Part shown: one piece after another, positions 478 to 37,200 of the stretch
Layout: the number at the start of each line of letters is the position of its first letter
Position numbering within the stretch: the first letter of the stretch is position 1
NCBI RefSeq assembly: GCF_963576615.1
Contig: NC_088708.1
Location: 31,131,191 to 31,195,190 of the forward strand
DNA from: Watersipora subatra
Lineage: Eukaryota > Bryozoa > Gymnolaemata > Cheilostomatida > Watersiporidae
Direction of reading: 5' to 3'
Length of the DNA: 64,000 bases
Notes under the pieces: model-generated
Told to the model about the DNA's origin: nothing
Databases searched by the model: none
Seen by the model: the letters and a program-made list of their open reading frames with translations, nothing else
Program-made: the position numbers and the translations under genes

Positions 478-3400
478 GAAGTGGAAAGGAGAAAGAAGGT
501 TGAAGAGCTGTACAAGTCTTGCAAAGACAGCTCACGAAAGCCTATTGTGATAGGAGGCCCAGACTATGAGGTGAGCATCATTACAACTGTTTTAGTTACC
601 AGACTACAACAACACCAATGGCGTAACTGAACTGTTTTCGTGGAGTTGTCTTCTCCCACCACATTTGTTTATAATTATTACCCTAGGACACTTAAGTATT
701 CGCGGCATCTAACTTTCGCGTTTTCGCGGAGTCATCATCACGCGAAAAATTAATGCGCGAAACTAAACTATCATAACGAACTAGCGAAAATTTGAAATTA
801 AATAGCTATGTTCTACACAGGCCTGTATTCACTGGTTGCAAGTTGGGGGGCTAATGTTAGACGACTAGTTATGAACATCTGGGGTGTGGAGAAGGAGGGG
901 GGGGTGCTGTAAGCTCCCAACAGGTTTCTCTTATGTAGGGCCTCAGCCGGGCCTCTCACGTGAAGTTTTAAAAAATTTTATTGGCAAGTATCAACATTTT
1001 TCTATTTTTTGAGATTTGCTTTGTTTTAGCTGATGTGACTGACAAAACGTTTTAAAATTAAAACAGGCAAAACTTGTATGCAGTTAAAAAGCTCAGAAAG
1101 AAGACATCTTTTTTTTTAAGCGTTTTAACAAAGATCATTTTTGCCGATTTTATTTCAAGTTCATTAAGTAGGATATGGGCAAGCAGATGTTTGCTAAAAC
1201 TTGATATTTTGCAAACCTTTATAAAAGTCGTCAACAAGAATATTTTGCCGCTGATGAAGATAATAATGACGCCTAAGAACTACTAAAAGTTGATGTTTGT
1301 ATCTATGGCTTCGAATAAAGTGAAATTCTACAGCGATAAAAACCTTTCTATAGCCGTTGGACTATGAAATTCCTAAAAAGTTGGGGCGTCTTAGCCGGCC
1401 AGCTGTCCAAGGGAATACGGCCCTGTAGTTCATTGATATCCACAACAAAATCGTGATATTAGAAATGCAGATAATTTTGTGTGTGATTGAGCTCATTGGG
1501 AAATTTCTAGTAAATTCGTTAATACACCGAATGAGCAGCATGGCAAAGCAAATTAAGATGACAAGTTTTTTTGGAAAAGCCAAGACAAACGAAGAAGATG
1601 ATGATATCAGTTTAGTCACCGAATTTGTAACTGATGAGGATGAAAGTCTGGTAGGTGAAGTCATACAATTAAATAATACTTATTGTAGTGATGAATTTTA
1701 CTGCCAACCAAAAACGATAACAACCCTCACCAGGTCCAACCATGTTATACAATTCTGGTTGTGATGTTGGTTGTTATCTATTTTCTTTTTTATGAGACAT
1801 GTACTGTATTTGATTTTTGTTTAATTTGAAATATTGTGAACTCAAAACGTGCCATGGCCATCGCTTGCTATAAATACTTGAGATCTAATATTGGTACCAT
1901 ATCGGTCCCGACGGAAAGGACCGAGACGTCATTGATAGTCCAAGAAACAAATGGCAGCAAGCGATCACGTTGAATTATCGATTTCTGCCATACATTTATA
2001 CCTGCGGGTTACAAATACAAACTAGTCGCAAATATAAAAACTTTTTTTACTAGAGGACCGGACCTGAGGAATTTAATTTGTTTGTTCCCCTGTATTTATT
2101 TTCACATCACTATATTTTCGCACTCATCAGAGCTGCGAAATTAAGTTGCAGCGAAATTTTACTCTGTGTGCTACTCACGAAACTAAATACTAGCGAAATA
2201 TAAGTGTCCTAGGGTATGGTGCATCATCAGTAGTAGGTGCTCGTTAAAGGGAAGTTGAAATGGCTGCACAGGAGAGTTTGTTATTGAAGCTCACAAATAG
2301 ATACAAGTGGGTAAGTGCAGGTGTGCCGATGCAGCAGCTAAAGCTGTGGCCTGACATACAGACACTCCCCTACTTACGAACATTCGAGTTACGAACAACG
2401 GTACATACGAACATGTCTGCGCGTATGTCCGCCGCTAATAAAGACACTTGGTGTTGATATTAGCAGCGGAAAGAAGCACTACTCGGAAGCACCACCCACC
2501 ATCCACCTTCCTCTGCCCAGTTCGTTGCAGTGCATAAGTGTGTGAACGCATCTCTACTGCGCAAAGAACTTTTTTATCTTCCTACATTGAAGTTATGGGG
2601 GAGGAAGTAACTTTTGAAGCCCATTCCAGCAACGACGAAGACCCTCTCATGATATAAATTACGTAGTACAGTACTGTACGTATTCTCTCCATTTTATTAA
2701 ATATTTTTTCAGTACAAACCAATACAGGCTACTTATACAAGCCTTAAACATACTTATATAAACCTTCAATATACTTATATAGGCCTTAAACATAAATTAT
2801 ATTACAAAATATAGCACTGAAGCAACTTACGAACTAATTCACCTTACGAACGATCGTTCGGAACGTAACTCGTTCGTAAGTTGGGGAGCGTCTGTATTTA
2901 TAAATAAATTCTTTTGTTTTTAGGTTGCGGTAGCCACACACTTTGGTTCATAACAAGCATATTCAGTGTGTGCTAAAATTACTTCATTCAATTCGTTTGT
3001 TGCTTGCCGATAGAGTAATTACGTTGTCGATCGTATATCGCTGAAAGTGGCATATAGGCGTATGCATAGGCCTATACAAACGCTTATACCATACCCCTCT
3101 TTCCTTGGTGGACATGTTTTTATATTTGTCATGCATAATCCTTTTTCGGTGCTCACAGGAAATCAGAAAGCGTCTTTAGCACCCAGCATCGACCGTTCTC
3201 CTATCGTATCACATGTTGTGTCTGTTGTTTTTCCAGGAAGGTCCGACATGCATAATTAATGAGGAAGAGTTCTTCGATGCAGTCGATGCATCTATGGACA
3301 AGCTGGAGACTGATGCAGAGCTGCTGGAGAAGCGAAAGGAAATGAGTAAGAATATCGTAAGGCACACTCCAGCTGCCAACACCCCAGGTTCTCTTCTCGC

Positions 3401-6400
3401 CCTCTCTCCTTCCAGCAGGCTCTTTGAGGAAGTGAGTGTAAAGATGTTGCCTTACTTGTAGTCGTAGCTGTTTTATGTATTGCTCTATCAATTTATGAAG
3501 TTGTCATACGCTGCAGTGTGTATCTATAAATTTATCATTGTCATATAGTGCATATAAAAAGCCGTAATGTGTTGCTCTATGCATTTGTAAAGCAATCATG
3601 TTCTATTCTTTTATTCATCGAGCTGTGTTGGAACTGTAGTATTTTGTCTTGCCATAAAGGTTAGGTTGTATTTGCTATCTCGCGTATTGACGCAATTCTT
3701 TTATGTTGTTCCTTTCTGTGCCCATAGAATTGTAATTATTGAACAGGTAAACAGTGTGATAGCTGAGCATATCAAGTATGCAGATTCAACCCTGGACAGT
3801 TCTGTTTGGGAGGCGATTCATGATGAGGGAGAGATGAAAGTCTACCGGAGAGAAATGGAAGAGGATGGGATGATTGTAGACCCGCTCAAAGCTGTACACC
3901 ATGTGCAGGTAAAGAGCAGCAGCCTACCTGCAAAATTTTTCAGTATTAATTGCATTGCTTCTGCTCCTTATTCTCATTTCTCATTGTTACAACATTGTTC
4001 ATTATTCACCGCTTTTGTTTTTAATTGCAAAAGTTTGATAAGGGGAACTTCCAACAGGTGGTTGTTAGTAGCGTAGCACATATGCACTAGCACCCTGCCA
4101 GTCCGGTACACCGTGAGAGATTGTCAGGTGTGCCAATGAAGCACACAGAATAAATAGCTGCATGATTATTACGAAATATTTGAAGGTAGCTGATTGGTAC
4201 AGGTATTAGAGTGTCTGTCTACCAAGCTGTATGTCTTGAGTTTTAATCCTGGACAGTGCAATCTTTTTTTAACCTCCAATCATGCCTTTGGATGGAAACG
4301 GCTCTTATTATAGTAAAGCTTTATTTGGTTATCTGATTATATCCGTCTTAAAAGGTTGCACACTCTTTCATCTCATCGCCCATATCATTCATAGTCCATA
4401 TGGTTCTCTATTTGCAGGGCGTCACCGGGCATGAGCTGTGCCACTATTTCTGGGACAACAGTGTGCGTATGGAGTGGGAGGGCACCCTCGACAGCACCGC
4501 AACCGTAGAAGTTGTGTCCGAGGACACAGTCATCACACACCAAGTTCACAAAAGGGTTTGGCCGACGACACAACGGGATTCAGTGTTCTGGTCGCACATC
4601 AGACATGTACCTAGCAAGGATGACACAAGTCCCGACGTTTGGATTGTATGTAACTTTTCGACGGAGCATGATAAAGCACCGGTTAGTGTCTGGTTAACTT
4701 TGTTTCCAGGGTTCCTTTTTCAATTTTGGTGAGCTATGAACCATTGTCGATAACAAAACAATTTTGCAATGTGCGAAAATAGAGAGTTGCACCTCTATAA
4801 TGACAATTGGAGTCTATATGTTAAAGAGTTAAAATATGGATGCACATGATGGCCTGTTATCCACTCTACTTGACCAAGTTTGAGAATAGACATCGTGCAT
4901 TCCTTAAAAGGAGTTTAACATGATAGTTTTACAAATAAGTTTTTATTACGAACAAATCAAGTTGAGATTGGATTCTTTTGTTTGTTCTTTATACAAACGT
5001 TGCAAAAAGTTGACAGATTGGCGTCTTTTCCTATTTTAGGGTAACTAAAATGTTAGATAAAAAATTTTGATAAAAACTAGAAAAGAAATAAACTTTGCTC
5101 AAAGTATTGCAATAGTAATATAATATGACTGATGACAGACAAGCTGCACAAACTAAATAGACATCCTTTTCCTGCAATGCCTGCCTGAATAGTTAAAACT
5201 ATAAAAATAAAAACACATCCATACTTATGTAATTAGTGGAATTTGCATTTGTGATAAACATCTGGTTATTTTAAACACAAAATTCTATGACTTTTTATAG
5301 AGCAACAAAAGAAAACAATATAGTAATCGTGCTTTGGTATCGTGCAAAGTTTGTCAGCTGAGTGGATAGTCAGCTATATAACAGAGATTCTTGCTTGTAT
5401 TCAACTTGTGCCACTGTGCCACTGCTTGTCCACAAGCAAAGTCAAATGATCGCAAATACTTTCATGAGACAATTGCTTTTCATTTTTTTTGCTGCAACCG
5501 TGTACTTAGCTGCTGTCATATGTCGTTTAATTAAGGGTATTTATAGATATAAATAGACAGGCAATGGCTGGAGTCTAGCTCAGCCTATTCTACCTACTAT
5601 TTAAGCTTGCATTGGCCCTTATATGGAGACAACCTTGCTGTGGATATTTGTAGCCAACCAAATGTGTTAGAGTTAAAATGAATGTCGCTCTGATATGCGA
5701 AACCACTGTCACTCCTCGTGATGATGGTGGGGAGACAACGAGAGACGACATCACTTGTCATGTGCAGTATGCTGCCAATGGTATGACATTATATGTATTG
5801 CCTGCTGAATGCTTCACCCGCTTTCCCGTATAGTTTCTTGCAATGTAAGATATACTTTTAGTTAAACAATGGAATGATTCGGTTGAAGATGAACTTGGCT
5901 ATGATCTGCGAGAGCAGATTATGCAGTGAAAAACTAACTAGAGCAAATGTCCGCACTAAAATATCCTATCACGCTTGTGGTGAGACTCCTTCCGCTGTTC
6001 CCCTATTTCCTCTTTTGTCCATGTTCTTGCTTTGTCGTGCTTTCAACATTGGTTATTACGCACTTTCACACATGTATCACTAAGGCTAGTTTCCAAAAGG
6101 GATGTCACAAATTGCAATATGTATTAGTTCCGAACACATACATGTAGGTACCTATGCTGTTTGCTATTGTGAGACGATCTGTCCCTTGGTACTAATTTAG
6201 ACTTGAGACGTTACTGTTTGCCTGACTCCTCGCGCTGTAGCTGTTCTCAGTAGCCGTTATTATGGGAATCACAGACTTTATACTATTAATCGCCCGTAAT
6301 TGCATGTTTCGCTTTGACTCTGTTTTTCATCTATAACACGATCATAAAGCAAAGCCTAAAACTATCTTATAGCTTTTTGGAGTTGTTTAACCATTCTCTG

Positions 6401-6820
6401 ATAACCTCCATTAACGCCTTTCTTGTTATGCAATTTGTGTGATTGGTTATTGCTCGCACTTTACTCTTGCTGTTTATTGAGTTCTTTTAGGTCTGTGTTT
6501 GCTATCTTTTATTTATATATCTTTATAAAAAGTTGGCACCAAAGTTTGCATCATCACTCATAGGCATATGCTGCAATCTTGATAACTCTCTACAACTTCC
6601 ACTAACATTGCTTCTGAACATTGACAGAGTCGGTAGGACAAACACTAACATCCAATCAGGCCCTGATCAGTGAATTGTATTGTTGATTATAGTGAATCCC
6701 GGAGGTTGGGCACCTCCATCTGTGCTCAGAGCCGTCTATAAACGCGAGTACCCAAAGTTTCTCAAGCGATTCACACAATATGTCACGGATGTCACAGCTT
6801 CTAAGCCTATCATGTTTTAA
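478..6820 (+). CDS. CERT1: Ceramide transfer protein (CERT/StarD11), 3' half, six constitutive exon positions
   Basis: CERT moves ceramide from ER to trans-Golgi for sphingomyelin synthesis. Exons: 478-570, 3237-3431, 3747-3908, 4418-4681, 5654-5780 (or alternative 5862-5979), 6693-6820. All have GT-AG borders and consistent phases, giving 322 residues plus stop. That matches about residue 276 to the end (598) of human CERT, so the N-terminal PH domain lies upstream of the window. The second exon carries the FFAT-type motif [10 protein letters not shown], which binds ER VAP proteins. Exon 4418-4681 starts the START cavity: the residues equivalent to human R442, E446, Q467, N504 and W473 are all present ([19 protein letters not shown]). 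The last exon contains NPGGW, with the W562 equivalent, and ends KPIMF-stop. Identity is clear from START-domain blocks. The 5' end is truncated by the window. Odd points are the duplicated exon, the minisatellite at the stop, and transposons in the 570-3237 intron. Confidence 0.95.
681..2214 (+). mobile_element. TA-flanked DNA transposon, degenerate, pogo/Tigger-like
   Basis: Inverted ends CCCTAGGACACTTAAGTATT (left) and the complement of AAGTGTCCTAGGG (right) are flanked by TA at 679-680 and 2215-2216, as expected for Tc1/mariner-pogo elements. Both subterminal regions carry many short GCGAAA motifs. A frame near 1549-1572 encodes QIKMTSFF, which fits the PCNA-binding PIP box found at the C-terminus of pogo transposases, followed by an acidic tail. 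No intact transposase frame is present. The element lies in a CERT1 intron. Confidence 0.7.
1453..1764 (+). pseudogene. Transposase C-terminal remnant with PIP-box-like motif
   Basis: This is an open frame of about 100 codons inside the 681-2214 transposon. The readable part is [11 protein letters not shown] followed by a run of Glu/Asp, resembling the C-terminal PIP box and acidic tail of pogo-family transposases. The upstream catalytic DDE region is not recognisable and the frame is too short, so I treat it as decayed. Assignment rests on the motif and on the flanking TIR/TA structure. Confidence 0.35.
2359..2894 (+). mobile_element. TA-flanked nonautonomous transposon, family A copy 1
   Basis: TIR CAGACACTCCCCTACTTACG (left) pairs with the complement of GTTGGGGAGCGTCTG (right), flanked by TA at 2357-2358 and 2895-2896. 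Subterminal ACGAAC/GTTCGT motifs occur at both ends. A short internal frame around 2596-2657 ([17 protein letters not shown]) may be a transposase C-terminus left by internal deletion. A second copy lies at 6889-7254. Confidence 0.85.
4190..4250 (+). repeat. tRNA-derived SINE head, family B
   Basis: The sequence GATTGGTACAGGTATTAGAG, followed by GTGTCTGTCTACCAAGCTG and a degenerate B box (GTTTTAATCC), recurs in the window. It is seen on the minus strand at 37650-37725, in both arms of the 35703-37185 palindrome, and weakly near 42260-42320. An A-box/B-box layout with about tRNA spacing suggests a tRNA-related SINE. It lies in a CERT1 intron. Confidence 0.5.
5654..5780 (+). CDS. CERT1: CERT1 START-domain exon, version a
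   Basis: The exon has 127 bases, enters in phase 0 and leaves in phase 1. The acceptor is TTTGTAG and the donor GTATGA. It encodes 42 residues around [13 protein letters not shown] with a loop rich in Asp/Gly, corresponding to about human residues 514-557, a beta-hairpin region between the N504 strand and the NPGGW loop. It keeps the CVR motif and an RDD equivalent of the human SRDN turn. Only 81 bases separate it from version b. Confidence 0.9.
5862..5979 (+). CDS. CERT1: CERT1 START-domain exon, version b (mutually exclusive)
   Basis: The exon has 118 bases, again phase 0 in and phase 1 out, with acceptor TACTTTTAG and donor GTGAGA. It encodes [17 protein letters not shown] and a shorter loop, ending ISYHAC. 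It is homologous to version a (8 of 11 residues match over [11 protein letters not shown]) and to the same human segment; LNN and AMIC are the human residues. It has no stop and both splice sites. Splicing both versions together would shift the frame, so they must alternate. A recent pseudo-exon is possible but less likely given the preserved frame. Confidence 0.85.
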
Positions 6821-7630
6821 GGTGTGGAATACTGTATCTGTGTAGTCATCTTTTGAGGTGAGTATATCATGTTCTAAGGTGTGGAATACAGACGGTTCCC
6901 AACCTACGAACGAGTTACGTTCCGAACGATTGTTCGTAAGGTGAATTTGTTCGTAAGTTGCTTCAGTGCTATATTAGTAGGGTAACCAATAAAGTAAAGG
7001 CCGGCAAATTCCTTTACAATACGTACAGTAAAAATAAAAAAGTTCTTTGCGCACTGGAGATACGTTCACGCACTTATGCGCTGCAACGAACTGGGCAGAG
7101 AAAGGTGGATGCTGGATTGGGCTTCTGAGTAGTGCCTATTTCCGCCGCTAATACGTCGGTAATACCGTCGGTATTAGCGGCGGACATACGCGCAGACCTG
7201 TTCGTATGTACGGGTTGTTCGTAACTCGAATGTTCGTAAGTAGGGAACCGTCTGTACTGTATCTGTGTAGTCATCTTTTGAGGTGAGTATATCATGTTCT
7301 AAGGTGTGGAATACTGTATCTGTGTAGTCATCTTTTGAGGTGAGTATATCATGTTCTAAGGTGTGGAATACTCTATCTGTGTAGTCATCTTTTGAGGTGA
7401 GTATATCATGTTCTAAGGTGTGGAATACTGTATCTGTGTAGTCATCTTTTGAGGTGAGTATATCATGTTCCAAGGTGTGGAGTACTGTATTGTGTAGTCA
7501 TCTTTTGAGGTGAGTATATCATGTTCCAAGGTGTGGAGTACTGTATTGTGTAGTTGTCCTTTGAGGTGAGTATATCATGTTCTAAGGTGTAGACTACTGT
7601 ATCTGTGTAGTTATCCTTTGAGGTGAGTAT
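6809..7630 (+). repeat. 57-bp minisatellite starting at the CERT1 stop codon
   Basis: The unit ATCATGTTCTAAGGTGTGGA... (57 bp) is repeated about eight times and is interrupted by the transposon at 6889-7254. The first copy includes the final codons and stop of CERT1 (ATC ATG TTT TAA), and later copies carry ATCATGTTCTAA. Each unit also contains GAGGTGAGTAT, a consensus-like splice donor. It lies in the 3' UTR or just downstream. The long minus-strand frame through it is only the repeat. Confidence 0.9.
6889..7254 (+). mobile_element. MITE, family A copy 2, inside the minisatellite
   Basis: The TIR is CAGACGGTTCCC at the left and GGGAACCGTCTG at the right. TA at 6887-6888 and 7255-7256 restores the minisatellite sequence GAATACTG when the element is removed. 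ACGAAC motifs are shared with the copy at 2359-2894. There is no coding capacity. An internal pair of GGCGG/ATTAGCGGCGG motifs forms a small hairpin near 7143-7190. Confidence 0.9.
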
Positions 7631-8850
7631 TGTCGGGACTATATTTCAATCATAGGAATGAATCGATAGAGAATTTAAGGGTGGTGTGGCTGTAATAATC
7701 TGTTTATTCATTAAAATCCTCAGAAGCTTTGATATTTATTTTGATGTCATAAATGAAAAATTGTTTATGTCAACAGACACTCTCTTTTTGCCTTTCATAT
7801 TTTTAGGTAATAAAAAATATGGAAACAATTTAAGTTTTCAATCTATTGTTAAATGGCCTGACACTTGCCACTCTTGAATGCAATGCCGAGTGAATGACAA
7901 AACAAGAGATCCAATTCCAAATTTTGTTTCATTTTAAATAGGATTTTTGTTGAAGTTTACTAAAAAATTTAAAATATAGTTTTTTGTCGAAGGTCGTAGA
8001 CACTCTTTTTATTCTTTTTAAAGACAGAATATAAAAAGAATAGTGGTGTATCCTAAGTCTGGAGGAATAAATTTTGTGAAACCAGTTTAAACACAGTCCA
8101 AACAAATTAGATTTATTTGTACATTTGTAGGTAAACAGCGATTAGATGTGCCTTTTATTACCTGTCACAGGCTTCCTATGCACAAATGGAACATTTTGAT
8201 TCATAGTTGTTTTGCATGATGTTCCTACTACACTTTATATACCTCTTATGCCTGCGGTACACATCCTACTATCATAGCCCTCATGCACCTCTATGTATGC
8301 TGTACACTTTCCTACTATAACCCTCGTGCACCTCCATGTATGTGGTACACTTTCTTTTTCTGCTTCAGGTCAGTGTCTGACATCAAGAAATCAATCAAGC
8401 TCAGATCGCAGTGTAAAGATTCCATTGCCTGCGCGAGCGCAACCACAATGCAATGACTCTTCTACCATTATTAATATAACATGAATAACCTTTCTAGTTG
8501 CCATGTATCTCTTGGCAAAAGTTGTTGTGTAATTGTATTAGCAAGACACCCAGCACTCTGAAGGTCCCTGTTATACCCTTGTATACCTCTGAGCGCGCTC
8601 ATACATTTTCAATGCATCTCTCCTTTCCAGGGCTGAGTGACCTTTTTATGGTTGTTACATTTTTAAGAATATAATATTTTTCGACCTTGTCTATGGATTA
8701 CTCTATTGTTATGATGTAATTTTGAGTAAATAACACCAAAAATACAATGAATCTTTGTACATGTACACAATGAAATAAATATATACGAGTGTTGTAGAAC
8801 ATCCTTCCAAGTGGTAGGAATTGATGAAACGATGGGTTCGTCTTCATTGT
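7631..8850. other. Tail-to-tail region between CERT1 and GKAP1
   Basis: This is AT-rich with no exon recognised. A plus-strand AATAAA at 8066-8071 could end CERT1 transcripts. A short near-duplicate (TATGC..GTACACTTTCCTACTATA) recurs around 8250-8350. TTTATT near 8113 is a possible minus-strand poly(A) signal for GKAP1, though distant from its stop. Confidence 0.5.
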
Positions 8851-20500: not shown

Positions 20501-22234
20501 GGGTCACGTGGTAGACCTCACTTCGTCTCATGGTAGGTGACATGGCGGCAGACCGTACCCTATAGTAACACTGGATGGTTAACCTGTAACATATGTCGTA
20601 TTGATGAATCAAAGGTTTTGATTTTTTCTTCACTTCTTTCAAGGTTGACTGGCAACAAAATTCACTTTACAGTTATTTGATATCAAAAAGTTCACCATGT
20701 CTTATTCTGCTGTGTTGTAGGTGCAAAATATGTGGAAATGTGATTACAAGCTCTTAAAAGCTAAAAATGGACAGTTAATTGCAGCCATCACAAAAACGCC
20801 GTAGGTTGGAATCCCTTTATTTTGATGTCATACTCAATTTGACGTGGTTATTGTTTTGACACGTGATGTTATCACGTGAAATAAAAGGTTCAATATATAA
20901 CGTCTCATAGTCTTTGAACCTTTTATTGGCCTTTCATTTGATGTGATAACATCACGTGTCAAAACAATAACCATGTCGAGTTGAGTACATCACCGAAATA
21001 AAAGGATTCCAAACTACGATGCTGTCGTTATGGCTGTGATTAACTGTTCGTTTTTGAGCTTTCAAGTGCTTATAATCACATTTCCACATATGTGCACCTA
21101 CATCACAGGGAAGTAAGACATGGTGAATCTTTTGATACCAAATAACTGTAATGTGAATTTTGTTGCAAGTCAACCTTTAAGTGTGCTAGCTGAAGCGTGA
21201 GTATTTTAACCAATCAACATTAAAGATTGGCGGGTGTAATAAGTATGATGTGCGCAGTTATTCCGCTGTTAATCAATGTAGCCGCAAGGAATAATCAGTT
21301 AGCACGCCTATTTGCAGACCTGTAGGTTCGGAGTTCAAATCCCCTTTGATTTTCGGTTTTTAGCGCTTTATTGTTATAACTGGACACCAACAGACAAATG
21401 ACAAATACTGAGATTTATATAGATAGTGTAGTTGATTAAAAAAATCTAAACATTTTGTCTATTTTCTTAAAAGTCTCAGTTTAACTTCAACAATTATTTT
21501 CAGGTCTCAACAAGTCAAAATGGAAACTCACTGGCTAAGAAAAATTCTCACTAAACTACTGACACCCAAGGAGTTCATGATACCTACGGAAAAGTTTTTA
21601 GTAAATCAGATGGCTATATTTTGAGAACTATAGTCACAAAATGAGTTGAATTTTTATAGACCCACGGTACTAGTCTCACAGTAACTTAGTGATGTGTTGA
21701 AATAAGTAGGGCATAGTTTACTTGTTACCATTTTAATGTAGAAACTTCATACGCTATTTTATTATCTGTAAATATGCAGGTTTCTGAGCAAATTTCTTTC
21801 ATCATCAATAAAAAGCTAAAGGAAGAACCACCATTTTGGGTTTAGCGGTTTTCAGCAGGATAAAATCAATTTTGGAATTGTCAGCTCTAGTAAAAATCAT
21901 TCCGTGAACCGTCAGAATGACCTTGAAATACTGTGAAAAAACTCCGTCTCAGTTTGTATCTGCATATGCCAGCAAGCTGTATTCTTGGTAGTAGTTCTTG
22001 AAGTACGGCTTGTAGTAGGTCAGCTCAATGAGTTTGAAGGGTCTTACCATTTTTTCAAAAGGATTCTCATCACGACTCGAATCGACTCTTTATCAGTTGT
22101 CTGATTGAAAGAGCCTGTTGTACATTGAGCTAAATTGTCTTTCATTCTAGAGGGTCATGTTGGGTGTTGTTACAGATCATCTACGGAGATGGAACCTGGC
22201 TGAAGATTTCTAACAACGCTGGTGCCTGCTAATA
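17556..22234. other. Divergent intergenic region between GKAP1 and LSM11
   Basis: This 4.7-kb AT-rich region separates two genes transcribed away from each other, so both promoters must lie here. I found no reliable core promoter motif. It contains the foldback at 20639-21181 and small hairpins near 18455-18505 (GATAGCTACC) and 18970-19005 (ATCCTCTGTAAG). Short frames here show no recognisable family. Confidence 0.5.
20639..21181. mobile_element. Foldback (near-complete palindrome) element
   Basis: The left half, beginning CAAGGTTGACTGGCAACAAAAT, is repeated in inverted, diverged form to ATTTTGTTGCAAGTCAACCTTT. Matching blocks include GTGGAAATGTGATTA and CACGTGATGTTATCACGTG. The centre is near 20905 (TTGAACCTTTTATT paired with AATAAAAGGTTCAA). 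The 73-codon minus-strand frame at 20952-21173 is simply one arm. Confidence 0.8.
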
Positions 22235-25200: not shown

Positions 25201-28200
25201 TAACAAGTTTGCCAAGATTCTGATTGGCGTCGTTCCATGAACTCCCGAATGGTTTACAGTCGAGAGTAGTATAGTGAGAGCAGATCTACACACACTAGGC
25301 GGAGCTTAGGGAGCAGGAAGTGACATCACATCAGGATCTGTTTGATTGACAGTTGGGGGGCGGAGCTAGGCGGTGTTGAGTCATGGTGTGAGTCATGGCG
25401 ATCTGTGTGATTCGTGGTGCGAGTAATGGTGTGAGTTGGTTGGTGACGTCGCGGTGGTGGTGTCGGTGGCCGAGTGGTGAGTCGGGCCGCGAGACGATTC
25501 GCGGTTGTATTTGGGATTATCGCGTCCGGTAGAGGTCGCTCTTCCGTGCCGTTTCGGGGATTGACGGAGAGCTCGGTGGCGACGGGTTGACGGACGGTGG
25601 CGGATGGATTTCGAGATCGTCGGAGCTTGTATGTATTTTCTTTTTTCCGATCCCGAATGAGAATGATGTGTCTGCGAACGAATATTCATTTTGATTGTAA
25701 ACTTCATAAATTCTGAAATTATCCATCGCTGTTATGGTTCCACTACTTTTTTAAAGATAATGTATAAATTGATGAAGTATTATTAGTTAGTGTTGATTGT
25801 TACTGGAGCTTCTGAGGAGTCAACTTCCAATAGTATGAATATCGACATTATTTCTGAAAGAACTTCCCAATTGAATATGAAACAAAGAGAGTATAGAAGA
25901 CCAACCAAGTCTAGATTGAACAGAACTACGTCATTACGAAGATCATCAAGAAAAAGTTCGGTAGTAAAGCGGTTATTCGAATCCAAGGAAAATTATATGG
26001 AAGGAGATGAGAAAATTACGTCACCTATTGCAACAGTTTTTAAAACCGAGGAAATGCAAGAACCATGGAAATGGATTGATCTAAAAGTTTTGGATATTCC
26101 AGCTTCGTTAGAAGTAATACAAGCAAATAAGTCTGAAGAAAATGACAATTGTGAGATTGCGTTGCAATTCTTCGTTGAACGTAAGGGAGAGCGTGTGGTA
26201 TTATGTTCGATCATCGAACCTCAAAAGTATAACATTCCCTCATCATTTCAATGGTTGACGCCAGCTCTCATGATATTGGATCGAAGTGAGATTTACATGA
26301 ACTCTAAGTCGTCATCAGGATTAAAACTTTTCAGAATTGACGGAGCATGCAATCTGAAGGAATTCAGAGAGAAATTAAACAAAGATTATAAACTCTGTAT
26401 ATCAAGACAGTAATGAGTTAAGGAAATGATATTATGATTAAATTTTATATAGTTTATTTGATGATATATCATAGGGATTTAAACTTACTATCAATGGATA
26501 TGTTATTGAATAAAAGTTTTGTATATAAAAATGCTAAAACATAATATAAAAAAGACTATTGAATTTCATTCAATCCCAATTTTCTTCTTCTTCTTTCATT
26601 GTCGAATGAGAATGAACTGTCTACAATCAAAACATACATTATTTTTAGTGAGATATAGTAAAAGTAAGACATACAATCAGATTAGATCATTCATTCAAAC
26701 TAAAAATCAAATATAATGTAATACTTACTGAAGAAGAAGAAGATCCATCCTTTTTCTGAATGGAATCTTCCTGTTGAGATACGGGAGCCTGCAATTGCAA
26801 TGATTACAGTCAGGATGGATTACTATAACCTTGCTGAGATAGTAGACTCCACATTCACAATGGACTCCAACTTAAATTGTAAATTTCAATTGCATTAGTC
26901 ATCGAATCATAGAATGATATGCAAGATGTAATACAGACAGAATAGGATATGCAATCAGCTAGAGTAGGACATACAGGCAATAAGAAAAACAAATATGTTA
27001 CATCACATAGTCAGACTAGGACACACAGACAGAGGAGGATATTCAGTTAAAATAAAGAAATAAATATAATGTACTACTTACTGAAGATTCAAATTCATAA
27101 AGCCTTCTCCGAAAAGGACTATATTTAGTTCGGTGATGCCCAGGATCCTACAATTGCATTGATTATAGTCAGAGTAGAACATGCAGACAAATTAAAACAC
27201 AGTCAGGTCTTACTTTGAATTTCAATTCCAACTCCTTTTGTTTTAAAGTGGAGTTATACAAAATATTAATTACTGTTTTCACAGATTGATACTCATTTTA
27301 ACATTCCTACATACCAATTGGAGTGAATTTTGTTGAATGTATTTGATCTTTAGTTACATGTTTTATCATTATACAACGATATTAGACGAAATAAATATAA
27401 TGTAATACTTACTTTTAAAGTCAATGTAACATCGAAGTTACGAAAGAACTCCTCTCTTTGCTGCTGCATGACCAATGATTTCTACAATAATTTCCAAAAT
27501 TACTTTGTATAATTTAATTGTTTCATTTAAGCAAACCCTATAATTCGAAATATATTTAATATGTAGTTTATATTCTCAAGTTTCCTTTAATCAAAAATAT
27601 AATTTAGTAAAATATTATAATGTAGTACTTACTTTCTTTTGAAGCTTGATCTTGAATTGAAAAGCCTTCTGTTTTTCAGGATCTACCTCTCTAGCCCAAG
27701 GGCAGTAGCCCCATATCTCAACACACGTGTCGATGCATTTTGTCTGAGTTAGGAGTCTATCCACGTTTTTGTCTCGAGCACACATTGTAAACTATTATAA
27801 ATAAAATGAGATGAAAAACTTATTCTTTCTCGTTGCTTATATAGTAAGCAGAATCAATATTATGGTTGATTAAACTTGTGTAATTTATGATCACGAAATT
27901 GTAAAATCAGCTAAACAGATTTCGCGAAATTCAATTTCGCGAAAGTTGACTATATAATATATATGATGTGAAATTTCGCGAAATCCAATTTCGCGAAAGT
28001 TGACTATATAATATATGATGTGAAATTTCGCGAAATCTAATTTCGCGAAATTCACTTTCGCGAAATTCAATTTCGCGAAAGTTGACTATATAATATATAT
28101 GATGTGAAATTTCGCGAAATCCAATTTCGCGAAATTCACTTTTCGCGAAATTGAATTTCGCGAAAGTTGACTATATAATATATATGATGTGAAATTTCGC

Positions 28201-31200
28201 GAAATCCAATTTCGCGAAATTCACTTTCGCGAAATTCAATTTCGCGAAAGTTGACTATATAATATATATGATGTGAAATTTCGCGAAATCCAATTTCGCG
28301 AAATTCACTTTCGCGTTGATGTACAAGTGAGCCGTGATTTATAAATGTATATATAATAATAAAATGTGAGTAAGATAAAAGCTACTGAAGATACAATAAA
28401 CAACGCTAGGATTGTGCTAGTCTATGTTAATATACAAGTGAGCAGTGATTATAATTGTATATAATAATAAAATGTGAGTAAGATAAAAGCTAGGGTTGTG
28501 CTAGTCCATGTTAATGTACAAGTGAGCAGTGATTATAAATGTATATATAATAATAAAATGTGAGTAAGATAAAAAGCTACTGAAGATAGAATAAACAAAG
28601 CTAGGATTGTGCTAGTCCATGTTAATATACAAGTGAGCAGTGATTATAAATGTATATATAATAATAAAATGTGAGTAAGATAAAAGCTAGGGTTGTGCTA
28701 GTCCATGTTAATGTACAAGTGAGCAGTGATTATAAATGTATATATAATAATAAAATGTGAGTAAGATAAAAAGCTACTGAAGATACAATAAACAAAGCTA
28801 GGATTGAGCTAGGCCGTGTTAATATACAAGTGAGCAGTGATTATAAATGTATATATAATATTAAAATGTGAGTAAGATAAAAACTACTAAAGATACAATA
28901 AGCAAAACTAGGATTGTGCTAGGCCATGTTGATATAAAAGTGAGCAATGATTATAAATGTATATATAATAATAAAATGTGAGTAAGATAAAAGCTAGGGA
29001 TGTGCTAGTCCATGTTAATATACAAGTGAGCAGTGATTATAAATGTATATATAATAATAAAGTGTGAGTGAGATAAAAGCTACTGAAGATACAATAAACA
29101 AAGCTAGGATTGTGCTAGGCCGTGTTAATATACAAGTGAGCAGTGATTATAAATGTATATATAATATTAAAATGTGAGTAAGATAAAAGTTACTGAAGAT
29201 ACAATAAACAAAGCTAGGATTGAGCTAGTCTATGTTAATATACAAGTGAGCAGCGAATATAAATGAATATATAATAATAAAACGTGAGTAAGATAAAAAG
29301 CTACTGAAGATACAATAAACAAAGCTAGGATTGTGCTAGGCCGTGTTAATATACAAGTGAGCAGTGATTATAAATGTATATATAATATTAAAATATGAAT
29401 AAGATAAAAACTACTAAAGATACAATAAGCAAAACTAGGATTGTGCTAGCCCATGTTGATATACAAGTGAGCAATGATTATAAATGTATATATAATAATA
29501 AAATGTGAGTAAGATAAAAGCTAGGGTTGTGCTAGTCCATGTTAATATACAAGTGAGCAGTGATTATAAATGTATATATAATAATAAAATGTGAGTAAGA
29601 TAAAAGTTACTGAAGATACAATAAACAGAGCTAGGATTGAGCTAGTCTATGTTAATATACAAGTGAGCAGCGAATATAAATGAATATATAATAATAAAAC
29701 GTGAGTAAGATAAAAGCTACTGAAGATACAATAAACAAAGCTAGGATTGTGCTAGACCATGTTGATGTACAAGTGAGCAATGATTATAAATGTATATATA
29801 ATAATAAAATGTGAGTGAGATAAAAGCTACTGAAGATACAATAAACAAAGCTAGGATTGTGCTAGTCCATGTTGATATACAAGTGAGCAGTGATTATAAA
29901 TGTATATATAATATTAAAATGTGAGTAAGATAAAAACTACTAAAGATACAATAAGCAAAACTAGGATTGTGCTAGGCCATGTTGATATACAAGTGAGCAA
30001 TGATTATAAATGTATATATATTAATAAAATGTGAGTAAGATAAAAGCTAGGGTTGTGCTAGTCCATGTTAATGTACAAGTGAACAGTGATTATAAATGTA
30101 TATATAATAATAAAATGTGAGTAAGATAAAAGTTACTGAAGATACAATAAACAGAGCTAGGATTGTGCTAGTCTATGTTAATATACAAGTGAGCAGCGAA
30201 TATAAATGAATATATAATAATAAAACGTGAGTAAGATAAAAGATACTGAAGATACAATAAACAAAGCTAGGATTGTGCTAGACCCTGTTGATGTACAAGT
30301 GAGCAATGATTATAAATGTATATATAATAAAATGTGAGTAAGATAAAAGCTACTGAAGATACAATAAACAAAGTTAGGATTGTGCTAGGCCATGTTAATA
30401 TACAAGTGAGCAGTGATTATAAATGTATATATAATAATAAAATGTGAGTAAGATAAAATCTACTAAAGATACAATAAGCAAAACTAGGATTGTGCTAGGC
30501 CATGCTGATATACAAGTGAGCAATGATTATAAATGTATATATAATAATAAAATGTGAGTAAGATAAAAGTTACTGAAGATACAATAAACAGAGCTAGGAT
30601 TGAGCTAGTCTATGTTAATATACAAGTGAGCAGCGAATATAAATGAATATATAATAATAAAACGTGAGTAAGATAAAAGCTACTGAAGATACAATAAACA
30701 AAGCTAGGATTGTGCTAGACCATGTTGATGTACAAGTGAGCAATGATTATAAATGTATATATAATAATAAAATGTGAGTGAGATAAAAGCTACTGAAGAT
30801 ACAATAAACAAAGCTAGGATTGTGCTAGTCCATGTTGATATACAAGTGAGCAGTGATTATAAATGTATATATAATAATAAAATGTGAGTAAGATAAAATC
30901 TACTAAAGATACAATAAGCAAAACTAGGATTGTGCTAGGCCATGCTGATATACAAGTGAGCAATGATTATAAATGTATATATAATAATAAAATGTGAGTA
31001 AGATAAAAGCTACTGAAGATACAATCAAAGCTAGGATTGTACTAGTCCATGATGATATACAAGGGAGCAGTGATTATAAATATATATAATAATAAAATGT
31101 GAGTAAGATAAAAGCTACTGAAGATACAATAAACAAAAACTAGGATTGTACTAGTCTATGTTGGTGTACAAGTGAGCAATGATTATAAATGTATATATAA

Positions 31201-34200
31201 TAATAAAATGTGAGTAAGATAAAAGCTACTGAAGATACAATAAACAAAGCTAGGACTGTGCTAGTCCATGTTAATATACAAGTGAGCAGTGATTATAAAT
31301 ATATATAATAATAAAATGTATTATTATATATACTCACATTACTTACTCTCATTTTATTATTATATATATATTTATAATCACTGCTCACTTGTATATTAAC
31401 ATGGACTAGCACAGTCCTAGCTTTGTTTATTGTATCTTCAGTAGCTTTTATCTTACTCTCATTTTATTATTATATATACATTTATAATCATTGCCCACTT
31501 GTACATCAACATAGACTAGTACAATCCTGCTTTGATTATTGTATCTTCAGTAGCTTTTATCTTACTCACGATTTATTATATATATATATATATTTATAAT
31601 CACTGCTCCCTTGTATATCAACATGGACTAGCACAATCCTAGCTTTGTTTATTGTATCTTCAGTAGCTTTTATCTTACTCACATTTTATTATTATATATA
31701 CATTTATAATCACTGCTCACTTGTATATTAACTCTTTCGCTACCACGTTAATTGTTGACCAAACGATTATTCTGCCCAAGTTAATTCAAACGGATTTTCT
31801 AAAAAATCCGATATACCGTTAGTATTTAAGCAATATCTCAAAAAATGAAAACATATATCGTTTTACTTTTAAATGTATCTTATTCAGAACAAAATTCTCC
31901 ACAAGATAGGTGTAAAATTGTTTAGCAACTCTTACTCTCACAAAATTCCTGACGCTTTTCTTTGCGTTGAACAAACTCGGTGTGTTTCTTATTGTCATGA
32001 CGATAACGGTCTGGTTTTACCGTTTTTGAAAAAATAATTAGAAATGGAATTGTTGAACCAAAAATTTAGTTGCACGTCATTGGCAACAAGGTTGTTTCAT
32101 TGGAAACAATTCTTTCAACAACATGTGGAGATTACTGTCTTCTCTTTGCAATATTTTGGAGCAGAGGATGTTCAATAGAAGATTTTCTAACAGTTATGCT
32201 AAAAATTTCTGAAACAGATACACGAGATCATGTAGTTCGAAAAACTATACTAGATAGATATGATTGGAATGAAAAAAAAATTAGTAAAAGTCTTAATAAC
32301 GAAGAAAATGAAGGTGTTGACAATGTACATATTCAAGGAACTTCCCAAATTGTTAAATTACTAGAAGATCTGACATAAATTTTTTTTTCTATATTTTACA
32401 ATTGAATATACATATATACTTTATATCGAAATAAAGTTGGTAACAAATACAACCGAATATTATTTACTTTTTGATATAAGTTTTATATATTGATATACTC
32501 ACACTGAGTTGGAGCTATCCTCAAAATAATCCACATATTAATCCATGTATGCCCCTTTACTAGTTCATCATCTTCATCTATTTACTGGTCGAGAAACTGT
32601 TATGGAATGGTTAAGCCAAACCAAACAGGAGAATTCCATAGGTAAACCTAGGAAAACAATCAGGTCGAATGCCAAGGCGCTTGTCCACACAACAGCCCCT
32701 GAAAACAGCGACACTCAACGAACTTAATCGCGAGTAGCCGGCTAACAGAATTCTAGCTGAAGCATACAAGCCTTATGGTATCAACACTCGATCGACCCAA
32801 ATTCTCAAATATAAGTAGGTATCAAGAGATGGTTAATGAGGCAGAATATTCCATCAGATTATGCAACGCTTATATAGTGAATTGAAGAATGATGGGTGTG
32901 TCCAAAGGAATTAATGAAGCGAAAATAGTAAACAGATTTTCGCGAAATTGAATTTCGCGAAAGTGAATTTCGCGAAATTGAATTTCGCGAAATTACACAT
33001 TATATATATTATATAGTCAACTTTCGCGAAAGTGAATTTCGCGAAAGTGAATTTCGCGAAATTGGATTTCGCGAAATTACACATATATATTATATAGTCA
33101 ACTTTCGCGAAATTGAATTTCGCGAAAGTGAATTTCGCGAAATTGGATTTCGCGAAATTACACATATATATTATATAGTCAACTTTCGCGAAATTGAATT
33201 TCGCGAAAGTGAATTTCGCGAAAACTGTTTATATATATCATTAGATCACAAAATTATTGAACCGCGACAACACTTCTACTTGTTATAAAACCTTCGAGCG
33301 AATATGCCTTTTCAATTCAGTTCATAACTTCACAATGAGTACCAGAGACAACAGAAAAAGGAAATTTCAAGAACGATTACAATGTGTAGATAAATGTGTG
33401 AAGCGATGGGGTTACTGCTCTCATGGAATGGAAATAAGCGTTCGGAAGCGAAAAGCTTGTCGATTTCTCTTACGTGAAAAGTTCTATCAAGATCTCAACG
33501 AAAGATTACGGTTTACAGTAAGTACTACAAATTCAATCTAGATGTTATGTAGGAATGATACAATGAATCTTCTCTTCTGAGTAGTAACTATGTGTTCTAG
33601 GCTGATTGTATTCATTGCAATTGCAAACTCCAATATCTTAGCAAAGTGTATGTTATATCCCTACTCAGATTAAAACAGATTATTTTAACTGAATATCCTC
33701 CTCTGTCTGTGTGTCCTAGTCTGACTATGTGATGTAACATATTTGTTTTTCTTATTGTCTGTATGTCCTACTCTAGCTGATTGCATATCCTATTCTGTCT
33801 GCATTACATCTTGCATATCATTCTATGATTCGATGACTAATGCAATTGAAATTTACAATTTAAGTTGGAGTCCATTGTGAATGTAGAGTCTACTATCTCA
33901 GCAAGGATATAGTAAACCATCCTGACTGTAATCATTGCAATTGCAGGCTCCCGTATCTCAACAGGAAGATTCCATTCAAAAAAAGGATGGATCTTCTTCT
34001 TCTTCAGTAAGTATTACATTATATTTGATTTTTAGTTTGAATGAATGATCTAATCTGATTGTATGTCTTACTTTTACTATATCTCACTAAAAATAATGTA
34101 TGTTTTGATTGTAGACAGTTCATTCTCATTCGACAATGAAAGAAGAAGAAGAAAATTGGGATTGAATGAAATTCAATAGTCTTTTTTATATTATGTTTTA

Positions 34201-37200
34201 GCATTTTTATATACAAAACTTTTATTCAATAACATATCCATTGATAGTAAGTTTAAATCCCTATGATATATCATCAAATAAACTATATAAAATTTAATCA
34301 TAATATCATTTCCTTAACTCATTACTGTCTTGATATACAGAGTTTATAATCTTTGTTTTAATTTCTCTCTGAATTCCTTCAGATTGCATGCTCCGTCAAT
34401 TCTGAAAAGTTTTAATCCTGATGAAGACTTAGAGGCGATAGATAATTTCAGAATTTATGAAGTTTACAATCAAAATGAATATTCGTTCGCAGACACATCA
34501 TTCTCATTCGGGATCGGAAAAAAGAAAATACATACAAGCTCCGACGATCTCGAAATCCATCCGCCACCGTCCGTCAACCCGTCGCCACCGAGCTCTCCGT
34601 CAATCCCCGAAATGGCACGGAAGAGCGACCTCTACCGGACGCCAACGAAATCCGATAATCCCAAATACAACCGCGAATCGTCTCGCGGCCCGACTCACCA
34701 CTCGGCCACCGACACCACCACCGCGACGTCACCAACCAACTCACACCATTACTCGCACCACGAATCACACAGATCGCCATGACTCACACCATGACTCAAC
34801 ACCGCCTAGCTCCGCCCCCCAACTGTCAATCAAACAGATCCTGATGTGATGTCACTTTCTGCTCCCTAAGCTCCGCCTAGTGTGTGTAGATCTGCTCTCA
34901 CTATACTACTGTCGAGTTACAAAATGTACCAAACATGAATGCTGTGTGGTTTGGTTTGCCTTTAAGGCTTTGTATTTATGTAGCGTATATTGTCATGAGT
35001 GGTATATATTAAAGGAGGTGTTCACTTATGCCTGCTGACTGCAGTCAAGTGCTGCCTGGTAAGTAGTGATTACAACCTTTAGCCCTTTTAGCTGGTTATA
35101 CGTTACTCATTGATAAACCCTCGTGTAAGAGTGCCTTGGCAACTACTTCATGTAATCTATCGACTTCTGGTTGTGTTACGTTGTCCGTTTACTGTAGAGT
35201 TAGAAGGCCCAGCTTCGCTGTTGCACAGTTGGGTGCAGTCTCGTACAAAGGTCAAGGTTATTACGAGATCATTCAGGAGTGTCCGTGGAACTTGCTCAGG
35301 TTTTGTTGTGGCATTTGACAGATACTTCAATTTGGTAAGTTTGACTAATTATTCTAGTTGTGCTATGATTGGTTTTTATTATGACTAGTTATGCTATGTA
35401 TGCTATATGATTGGCTGATTTGATTAGGACTAGTTATGCTATGTGTGCTATATGATTGGCTGATTTGATTACGAATAGCTATGCTATGTGTGCTATGATT
35501 GGTTGATTTGAGTACGGATAGCTATGCTTTGTGTGCTGTGATGGGTTGGTTTAACTAATCATGCTGAGAATTCTTTGTTTGTGTATCTTTTAAAATAGAT
35601 GTTAGTTTTTTGTACAAAAAAAAATCATGTGTTTTTTTGTCAAGAAGACCAAAGCATCTTTACGAACCTAACCATGCAATGACATTGATTGCATCACAAG
35701 TACAGTCGGCGCTCTTACAACGTAAATAATCCATTCCAGGAACCTTTACGTTATAGGAAATTCATGTTATAAGAACAGTAAAATGCATGTAAATTGCCTA
35801 ATTCGTTCCAAGATCTTTCCAGACTCACCCCTTTGGCCATATAAAAAAGAAAACCTTGACTTGACTCATTAAATTTGGGAGCTGTACCGTTTTATAGACC
35901 ATAATTGCGGTAATTTTTACAAAAAGTTGATGGGGAGCACATATCTTTGACGATCATTCACAATGATTTGCTTATTTTTTCTAAACACCAGTCTATTCGG
36001 CAAAGGAAAACTAATAACAAATATTTTCTACTTTTTCAATAATGCAAAACATCAAAATATTTTTATTATAAAAAAGCGGTACATATTATACTTCCTATTC
36101 TTTGGCTATCTGTTATCAGGGGGTCATGGTTAGGATAAAAGAGAACTTTCAACGATACTCCTGCTCGTGATATTCAGATTGGTGGACTGACGCGGTAACA
36201 CCTGCACCAATCGATCGCCTTTATATTAATGAATAATTGAGCAGCTACCCTATTCTCTGTTTTGTCGAACATCTGACGATTTTTGATGACAAACCATAAT
36301 GTTGCGAAAGTTCTATAAAGTAGATGCTCCTATAACGTAAATTCCAGATAACGTAAAAATTTTATGTAAAGTTTTTGCTTCCTACTATGTACAAAATTCC
36401 ATATAATGTAAAGTGGAAAGTTGGGCAAGTTTTCAAAATCGATTTGAATGTTAGTTTATTTGGCCGCACTTGCGGAAGAAAAAACACTGTGCATTCAGCG
36501 TTATATCTATTATAAAAGACTTTCGCGACATTTTAGTTCATTGTAATAGATCATTAAATGTGTCGCCAAAAAGGTGAATAGGATAGCTGCGCAATTGTTC
36601 TTTGTGCAATATTCAACTGCGCAATAAATAAAAGGCGATCGATTGGTGCAGGTGTTACAGCGTTGGTCCACCAGTCTTAATGTCACGAGTTGAAGTATCA
36701 TTGAAAATTATCTTTATCCGAACCTTGACCACTGGATAGCGATAGACGATGAGCAGGTAGAACCGCTTTTTATAGTAAAAAGATTTGTTGTTTTGCCTTA
36801 TTGTAGACGTACAGAGTATTTGTTATTAGCTTTACTTTGCTGTTTAGAGAAATAAGCAAATCGTTGTAAATGAACGTTAAAGATGTGCAGTCCCTATCAA
36901 CTTGTTGTAAACTTACCGCAATCATGGTCTATAAAACCAGTGAGATTGATCATAAAAAGGAGAAAAGTTTTTGATGCAAACCAATAATTCTGCAGTTACG
37001 GTACAGCCTGCAAATGAAAAGAGTTAAGTAAACTTTTTCCTTTTTCCATGAACAAAGGTGTGAGTTTGGAAAGATCTTGGAACGGATTAGGCAATTTACG
37101 TATATTTTACTGTTCTTATAATATAAATTCCCTATAACATAAGCATTCCTGGAGCGGATTATTTATGGTATAGGAGCGTCTACTGTATATGATGGATAAA

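What the first reader, a model, noticed from the sequence alone, without database searches (positions are those of the whole stretch)
5654..5979. Mutually exclusive alternative exons inside the CERT START domain
Two homologous exons (5654-5780 and 5862-5979) are separated by only 81 bases. Both enter in phase 0 and leave in phase 1, so using both breaks the frame. Each encodes a credible version of the same START beta-hairpin just before the NPGGW loop, with different loop length and charge. The ceramide-contact residues (R442, E446, Q467, N504 equivalents) are in the upstream constant exon. The swap could therefore tune lid or pocket shape, lipid choice or membrane contact rather than abolish binding. 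I know of no such exon pair in vertebrate CERT.
Basis: partly seen in the sequence, partly recalled or inferred. Interest (0 to 1): 0.87.

Follow-up and report, generated by a model that had tools for sequence, protein, structure and literature searches.

The report
Duplicated exon in bryozoan ceramide-transfer gene
In the moss animal Watersipora subatra, the gene for the ceramide carrier CERT holds two diverged copies of one exon of its lipid-binding domain; a public gene model already uses the second copy in place of the first, so the protein probably comes in versions that differ at a hairpin that in the human protein touches the membrane-targeting domain.

Summary
The exon pair is real and correctly placed. 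Exon a (5654-5780) and exon b (5862-5979) are tandem copies of the CERT exon for human residues 514-556. Either one, joined to 4418-4681 and 6693-6820, gives a complete START domain. Both together shift the frame; neither gives an immediate stop. The window lies in Watersipora subatra (Bryozoa). Its public isoform X2 joins exon b directly to the upstream exon and skips a, so b is an annotated alternative. But X2 reads through b's donor into the intron and ends at 6083, losing the C-terminal START helix. Strict mutual exclusion (b joined to 6693) is plausible but unshown. The copies are old: 12 of 38 aligned residues identical, third codon positions near background, ceramide contact Y553 kept in both. 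The clearest difference is the beta-hairpin loop: b lacks human residues 534-537 and puts Arg at 532. In human CERT this loop contacts the PH domain, a contact thought to restrain Golgi binding. My leading hypothesis is that b weakens PH-START autoinhibition rather than altering the pocket. No RNA reads could be mapped and no second species with b was seen.

The parts
478..570 (+). CERT coding exon (coiled-coil region; P0123 residues 310-340)
3237..3431 (+). CERT exon with the FFAT-like stretch EEFFDAVDA (motif name recalled)
   Evidence: F352, D354 and A355 of P0123 nearly invariant in the 55-row alignment
3747..3908 (+). CERT exon, start of START domain
4418..4681 (+). Constant upstream START exon (equivalents of E494/N495 loop and N504); donor CCG|GTTAGT
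5654..5780 (+). Exon a, canonical copy of human CERT residues 514-556; enters phase 0, leaves phase 1; donor ATG|GTATGA
5781..5861 (+). 81-nt spacer intron between a and b; the nine CERT introns upstream of 4418 are about 190 nt or longer
5862..5979 (+). Exon b, diverged second copy; enters phase 0, leaves phase 1; donor GTG|GTGAGA
   Evidence: used in public isoform X2 (P0123)
5980..6083 (+). Read-through tail of exon b in isoform X2: 34 codons (the first one split by b's donor) and stop TAA
6693..6820 (+). Constant last coding exon (NPGGW loop, C-terminal helix, stop TAA)

Best explanation
An old tandem duplication of one START exon gave the W. subatra CERT gene two alternative versions, a and b, of human residues 514-556. 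Splicing from 4681 picks a or b (for b: seen in a public gene model). I infer that b is normally joined to 6693, giving a complete START domain, and that b read-through (model X2) is a second, truncated output. The functional difference I expect is at the beta8'/beta9' hairpin. Version a keeps the Val533-Pro535-acid537 loop that in human CERT packs against the PH domain. Version b lacks residues 534-537, has Arg at 532 and is net +5 instead of -1. Isoform b should therefore still bind ceramide (Y553, R520, C529 and R544 kept) but hold its PH domain less tightly, so that it sits at the Golgi more readily. Shown: anatomy, homology, b used without a in a gene model. Inferred: joint b-6693, weaker autoinhibition, any tissue control.
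Against: The only visible public model with b does not join b to 6693. No other protein fetched carries b, and the two bryozoan-like relatives with a full segment, P0150 and P0230, carry an a-type exon. Codon make-up of b is not coding-like: -0.56 per codon, where five left-out CERT exons score 0.01 to 0.31 and stop-free intron windows average -0.41, on only 320 training codons. The second-position signal (23 of 38, 0 of 2000 shuffles) weakens when shuffled codons are realigned (22 of 38 in that alignment, reached by 67 of 1000). Against the PH idea: 5 of the 167 other distinct CERT-like segments have a loop as short as b's or shorter, 60 of 168 lack the PP pair, and b's loop charge of 0 is ordinary. 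The docking paper's own discussion says its interface mutations had no effect on, or increased, the stability of the START-PH contact in its computations (PMC7729066).
Confidence: 0.5

Rival explanations
1. Exon b is an alternative last exon. Transcripts splice 4681 to 5862, ignore b's donor and end in the intron after 5979. They encode a CERT with PH domain and FFAT-like region but a START without the C-terminal helix, which cannot close its cavity: a transfer-dead or regulatory form.
For: This is exactly public isoform X2. The START cavity is closed by the C-terminal helix (PMC3127847, passage), and X2 lacks that exon; its tail is modelled at pLDDT 48-58.
Against: b keeps a donor stronger than a's at the right place and phase. 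Of 13 poly(A)-signal hexamers tried, 5980-6692 holds only CATAAA at 6343 and TATAAA at 6524, not AATAAA or ATTAAA. The 34-codon tail is no longer than chance allows: 874 of 6,633 non-coding windows of that length are stop-free. The tail scores like intron (-0.66 per codon).
Confidence: 0.3
2. Exon b is a dying copy: once used, now read mostly as splicing noise or intron retention, with no function of its own.
For: Much lower similarity to CERT than a (28.1 against 76.1 bits); the common T531 and C549 replaced (S, T); codon make-up intron-like; X2 fails to splice out the next intron.
Against: Open frame, intact splice sites, Y553/R520/C529/R544 kept; S at 531 and T at 549 also occur in other CERT-like segments (4 and 22 of the 167 other distinct ones). 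Simulated neutral drift from b itself, 3000 runs: at 0.25 changes per site 36% stay stop-free and 0.07% keep the CERT score.
Confidence: 0.17
3. The exon swap mainly tunes the lipid pocket or its choice of ceramides.
For: Position 521, a ceramide tail contact in simulations of human CERT, is Val in a and Leu in b; 525 and 533 also differ.
Against: Head-group contact Y553 and Met at 523 are the same in both; the changes at 521, 525 and 533 are mild, whereas the loop at 532-538 changes strongly.
Confidence: 0.2

Closest known systems
Mutually exclusive tandem-duplicated exons as defined by Pillmann et al. 2011 (PMC3228551, passages)
   Same: [quoted passage not shown] double inclusion breaks the frame
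   Different: One-of-two choice not shown by reads; the visible model uses b as a last exon, and that paper counts homologous terminal exons (its type B) as false positives
CERT / STARD11 (PH, FFAT, START ceramide carrier)
   Same: Domain order, both START versions complete when joined to the last exon, ceramide contact Y553 kept, PH contact residues kept
   Different: The known CERT and GPBP/CERTL forms differ by a serine-rich domain (abstract of PMC11642137 in listing), outside START (recalled); here the alternative lies inside START
W. subatra 'ceramide transfer protein-like isoform X2' (public protein, P0123)
   Same: Same gene and same exon b, following the same upstream exon
   Different: Reads through b's donor; its name says nothing of a duplicated exon, and none of my paper searches showed a paper that discusses one

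Membership tests
Mutually exclusive exons | Similar length (that study allowed 20 aa difference) | tested here: met
   42 and 39 full codons; criterion from passages of PMC3228551
Mutually exclusive exons | Conserved splice sites and reading frame | tested here: met
   AG/GT at both ends, phase 0 in and phase 1 out for both
Mutually exclusive exons | Sequence homology | tested here: met
   b E 1.2e-7 with a profile lacking both copies; a-b alignment score reached by 0 of 1000 codon shuffles
Mutually exclusive exons | Transcripts carry exactly one of the two | tested here: inconclusive
   X2 carries b without a; no protein with a of this species was visible and no reads could be mapped
Mutually exclusive exons | Both are internal exons joined to the same next exon | tested here: inconclusive
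   Phases allow both to join 6693, but X2, the one visible model, ends in the intron after b
CERT (STARD11) | PH domain at the N-terminus | tested here: met
   PF00169 at 43-128 of P0123, 53.7 bits
CERT (STARD11) | Complete START domain | tested here: met
   Profile 7-203 of 207 for a and for b joined to the last exon; X2 as annotated only to 157
CERT (STARD11) | Ceramide head-group contact Y553 | tested here: met
   Tyr in a and b; Tyr in 167 of 168 distinct segments
CERT (STARD11) | Ceramide transfer activity | not testable with these tools
   needs protein
Alternative last exon with intronic poly(A) | Poly(A) signal downstream of the exon | tested here: inconclusive
   No AATAAA/ATTAAA in 5980-6692; CATAAA 6343, TATAAA 6524

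The most novel reading that the evidence does not exclude
A splice switch inside START sets whether CERT is autoinhibited: a-isoforms hold the PH domain shut through the 532-538 loop, b-isoforms lack the loop and are constitutively free to bind Golgi PI4P. Vertebrates control this step by phosphorylation of the serine repeat (recalled); a bryozoan would also have put it under splicing control.
Probability: 0.15. Interest if true: 0.75.

Novelty: new member of a known kind. Interest (0 to 1): 0.5.

Why it matters
CERT supplies ceramide for sphingomyelin in animals, and its START domain is otherwise well conserved. Two natural versions of the same hairpin in one gene are a ready-made experiment on what that hairpin does, in particular whether the PH-START contact seen in the human crystal complex restrains the protein in animals at large. 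It also shows that a gene model can hide a duplicated exon as an alternative end.

Tried and rejected
A third copy of the exon: tblastn and profile scans of the window's six frames show only a and b; the next profile hit, on the minus strand near 20,900 (E 0.015), is a short chance-like match (the profile contained a and b, that did not). A second CERT gene: a whole-genome search with Pfam START gave 6 exon-level matches, of which only the window's looked CERT-like by its translation and by the segment profile; that search scores best candidates only. Spliced retrocopies that would show the b-6693 joint: the genome search with the spliced protein never got an answer. Long-range RNA pairing that might choose between exons: 6 weak inverted repeats in 4600-6830, none convincing, no second genome to test them. 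Rfam: 0 matches in 4400-8800. The b read-through tail as a real C-terminal helix: the X2 model lays it where the CERT helix is, but at pLDDT 48-58 and with an alignment that seems to have put it on those columns, so I take nothing from it. The a-b second-codon-position test looked decisive but weakened with realigned shuffles. Whether isoform a is in the public set: P0123 stands for 3 member sequences of which I can see one. In print: no held paper has both 'mutually exclusive exons' and 'START domain'; of 6,781 papers with three of 'mutually exclusive', 'ceramide transfer protein', 'exon', 'splice', the 20 listed had no occurrence of 'ceramide transfer protein'; the one paper with 'bryozoa' and 'mutually exclusive exon' is, by title and start of abstract, about splicing in diseased brown trout kidney; none has 'tandem exon duplication' and 'lipid transfer protein'; of 12 papers on CERT isoforms I saw titles and abstract starts only. 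The human tandem-exon survey PMC9741552 has no occurrence of CERT1, COL4A3BP or STARD in its main text.

Full report
What is there. The window's first 6.8 kb carry the 3' part of a CERT gene on the + strand. Spliced versions with either copy are open to the stop at 6818-6820. With both copies the frame shifts and stops inside b (stop at 5927-5929 by my count, 50 nt before the b donor). With neither copy the joint 4681|6693 itself makes TGA. Both START versions align over their whole length with human CERT (231.8 and 215.9 bits) and cover Pfam START positions 7-203 of 207 (105.8 and 96.8 bits). A profile of 28 CERT segments that excludes both copies finds a (76.1 bits) and b (28.1 bits, E 1.2e-7) in the window's six-frame ORFs, the next hit having E 0.015.

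Where it comes from. A database protein, P0123, is named 'ceramide transfer protein-like isoform X2 [Watersipora subatra]' and lies on a contig of 79,350,317 bases. The window lies on contig C1 of exactly that length, in a genome of 783,720,542 bases; the published W. subatra assembly spans 783.70 Mb (PMC12902671, abstract and passages). All of P0123 maps to this locus. Its exons run from about 18.5 kb before the window to 6080, in 11 tblastn pieces of 94.7-100% identity, flanking residues that tblastn adds included. W. subatra is a cheilostome bryozoan.

The decisive find. P0123 uses exon b: after ...EHDKAP it continues [39 protein letters not shown], so the upstream exon is followed directly by 5862 and a is skipped. 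It then ignores b's donor and reads 34 codons on to the stop at 6081-6083. So b is not just an open frame: a public annotation puts it into a protein instead of a. The protein set is clustered at 90% and P0123 stands for 3 sequences; what the other two are I cannot see. The read support behind the model was not available either.

Does b also join 6693? Indirect evidence says probably. b's donor (GTG|GTGAGA, 3.81) is better than a's (ATG|GTATGA, 1.75) on a generic consensus and sits at the homologous phase-1 place; 103 of 63,980 + strand positions in the window carry a GT donor that good. The intron after b has no AATAAA or ATTAAA. Only with 6693-6820 is START complete: X2's Pfam match stops at profile position 157 and scores 68 bits. 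The spacer intron of 81 nt is well under the shortest of the nine introns mapped upstream of 4418 (about 190-205 nt, between the pieces ending at -15747 and starting at -15553; 315 nt next), in keeping with a and b not being joined to each other. This is suggestive, not proof of steric exclusion.

Age and constraint. a and b share 12 of 38 aligned residues, fewer than a shares with human (20 of 42) or b with human (16 of 39). Third codon positions match at 14 of 38, near background in both controls (9.6 expected by shuffling; 0.368 against 0.295 with realigned shuffles). Second positions match at 23 of 38. That is extreme against plain codon shuffles (0 of 2000) but only mildly so when shuffled codons are realigned each time (22 of 38 in that alignment, reached by 67 of 1000). 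The safe reading is that the duplication is old, synonymous sites are near saturation, and b still looks like CERT, which simulated free drift soon erases. Against present use of b: its codons look like intron rather than CERT coding sequence, on a small training set of 320 codons.

Who else has it. Of 345 fetched or kept proteins of 60 residues or more (my own translation P0228 among them), only P0123 and P0228 carry b. Six others score b over a by 1 to 14 points in the segment; these are fragments without the exon or divergent STARTs. On the whole START, 23 of 345 score the b version over the a version, all but P0123 and P0228 by 14 points or less. The searches listed the best 120 of 447, 1834 and 183 hits. 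P0230 groups with W. subatra in a midpoint-rooted tree (96/80 support) and P0150 branches nearby; both are unnamed and both have an a-type exon. I saw no second species with b, and the DNA of the relatives could not be read, so a hidden b there is not excluded.

What the swap changes. In human numbering the exon is 514-556. Y553 is Tyr in both; 523 is Met in both; 521 is Val in a and Leu in b. The large change is at the hairpin loop: b lacks 534-537, has Arg for Leu532, and the whole segment is net +5 against -1 in a. In human CERT this loop and the one at 494-498 touch the PH domain in the autoinhibited state. N495, E498 and V533 are listed as contacting K32, W33, Y36 and Y96 of PH, and E494R, N495K, P535R and E537K are the START mutations described for that interface (PMC7729066, passages; the original Prashek 2017 paper is not held). 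Version a keeps Val533, Pro535 and an acid at 537. The W. subatra PH domain keeps all seven PH residues I checked (K32, W33, Y36, R43, Y54, K56, Y96; aligned to bird CERT P0213). Hence the leading hypothesis: b weakens PH-START autoinhibition. Cautions: 5 of the 167 other distinct CERT-like segments have a loop as short as b's or shorter, 60 of 168 lack the PP pair, b's loop charge of 0 is ordinary, and the docking paper reports no weakening of the contact by those mutations in its own computations.

Verdict. A genuine old tandem exon duplication in bryozoan CERT, used as an alternative in a public model. Mutual exclusion is likely but unproven. It is a new member of a known kind (tandem alternative exons), in a gene where my paper searches showed no report of one.

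Noticed in passing
about 6811-6870 and 7255-7630: A 57-bp minisatellite whose first unit overlaps the last CERT codons and the stop codon (ATCATGTTTTAAGGTGTGG...), with a main array of 6.6 copies at 95%; the consensus unit carries a good 5' splice site look-alike, GAG|GTGAGTAT, in what should be the 3' UTR.
   Followed up: partly
about 2358-2898 and 6888-7255: Two copies, in opposite orientation, of a short element with terminal inverted repeats (ACTTACGAAC...GTTCGTAAGT), judged by eye; the second one appears to have inserted into the minisatellite behind CERT.
   Followed up: partly
25260-25729 with 34435-34915, and 26302-27055 with 33680-34434: Long inverted repeat arms, 96.9% and 98.9% identical (one arm holds about 570 extra bases), around a 110-bp satellite block (28315-31732) that is itself partly inverted; could be a large mobile element or an assembly palindrome.
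   Followed up: no
5933-5938, 6601-6606, 6644-6649: ACTAAC branch-site-like motifs; the branch A of the one at 6644 lies 45 nt before the last coding exon, and one motif lies inside exon b.
   Followed up: no
G000:C10, L002 and L003: Two nearly identical START exons of another gene 48 kb apart in the same genome, which look like a recent tandem gene duplication.
   Followed up: no
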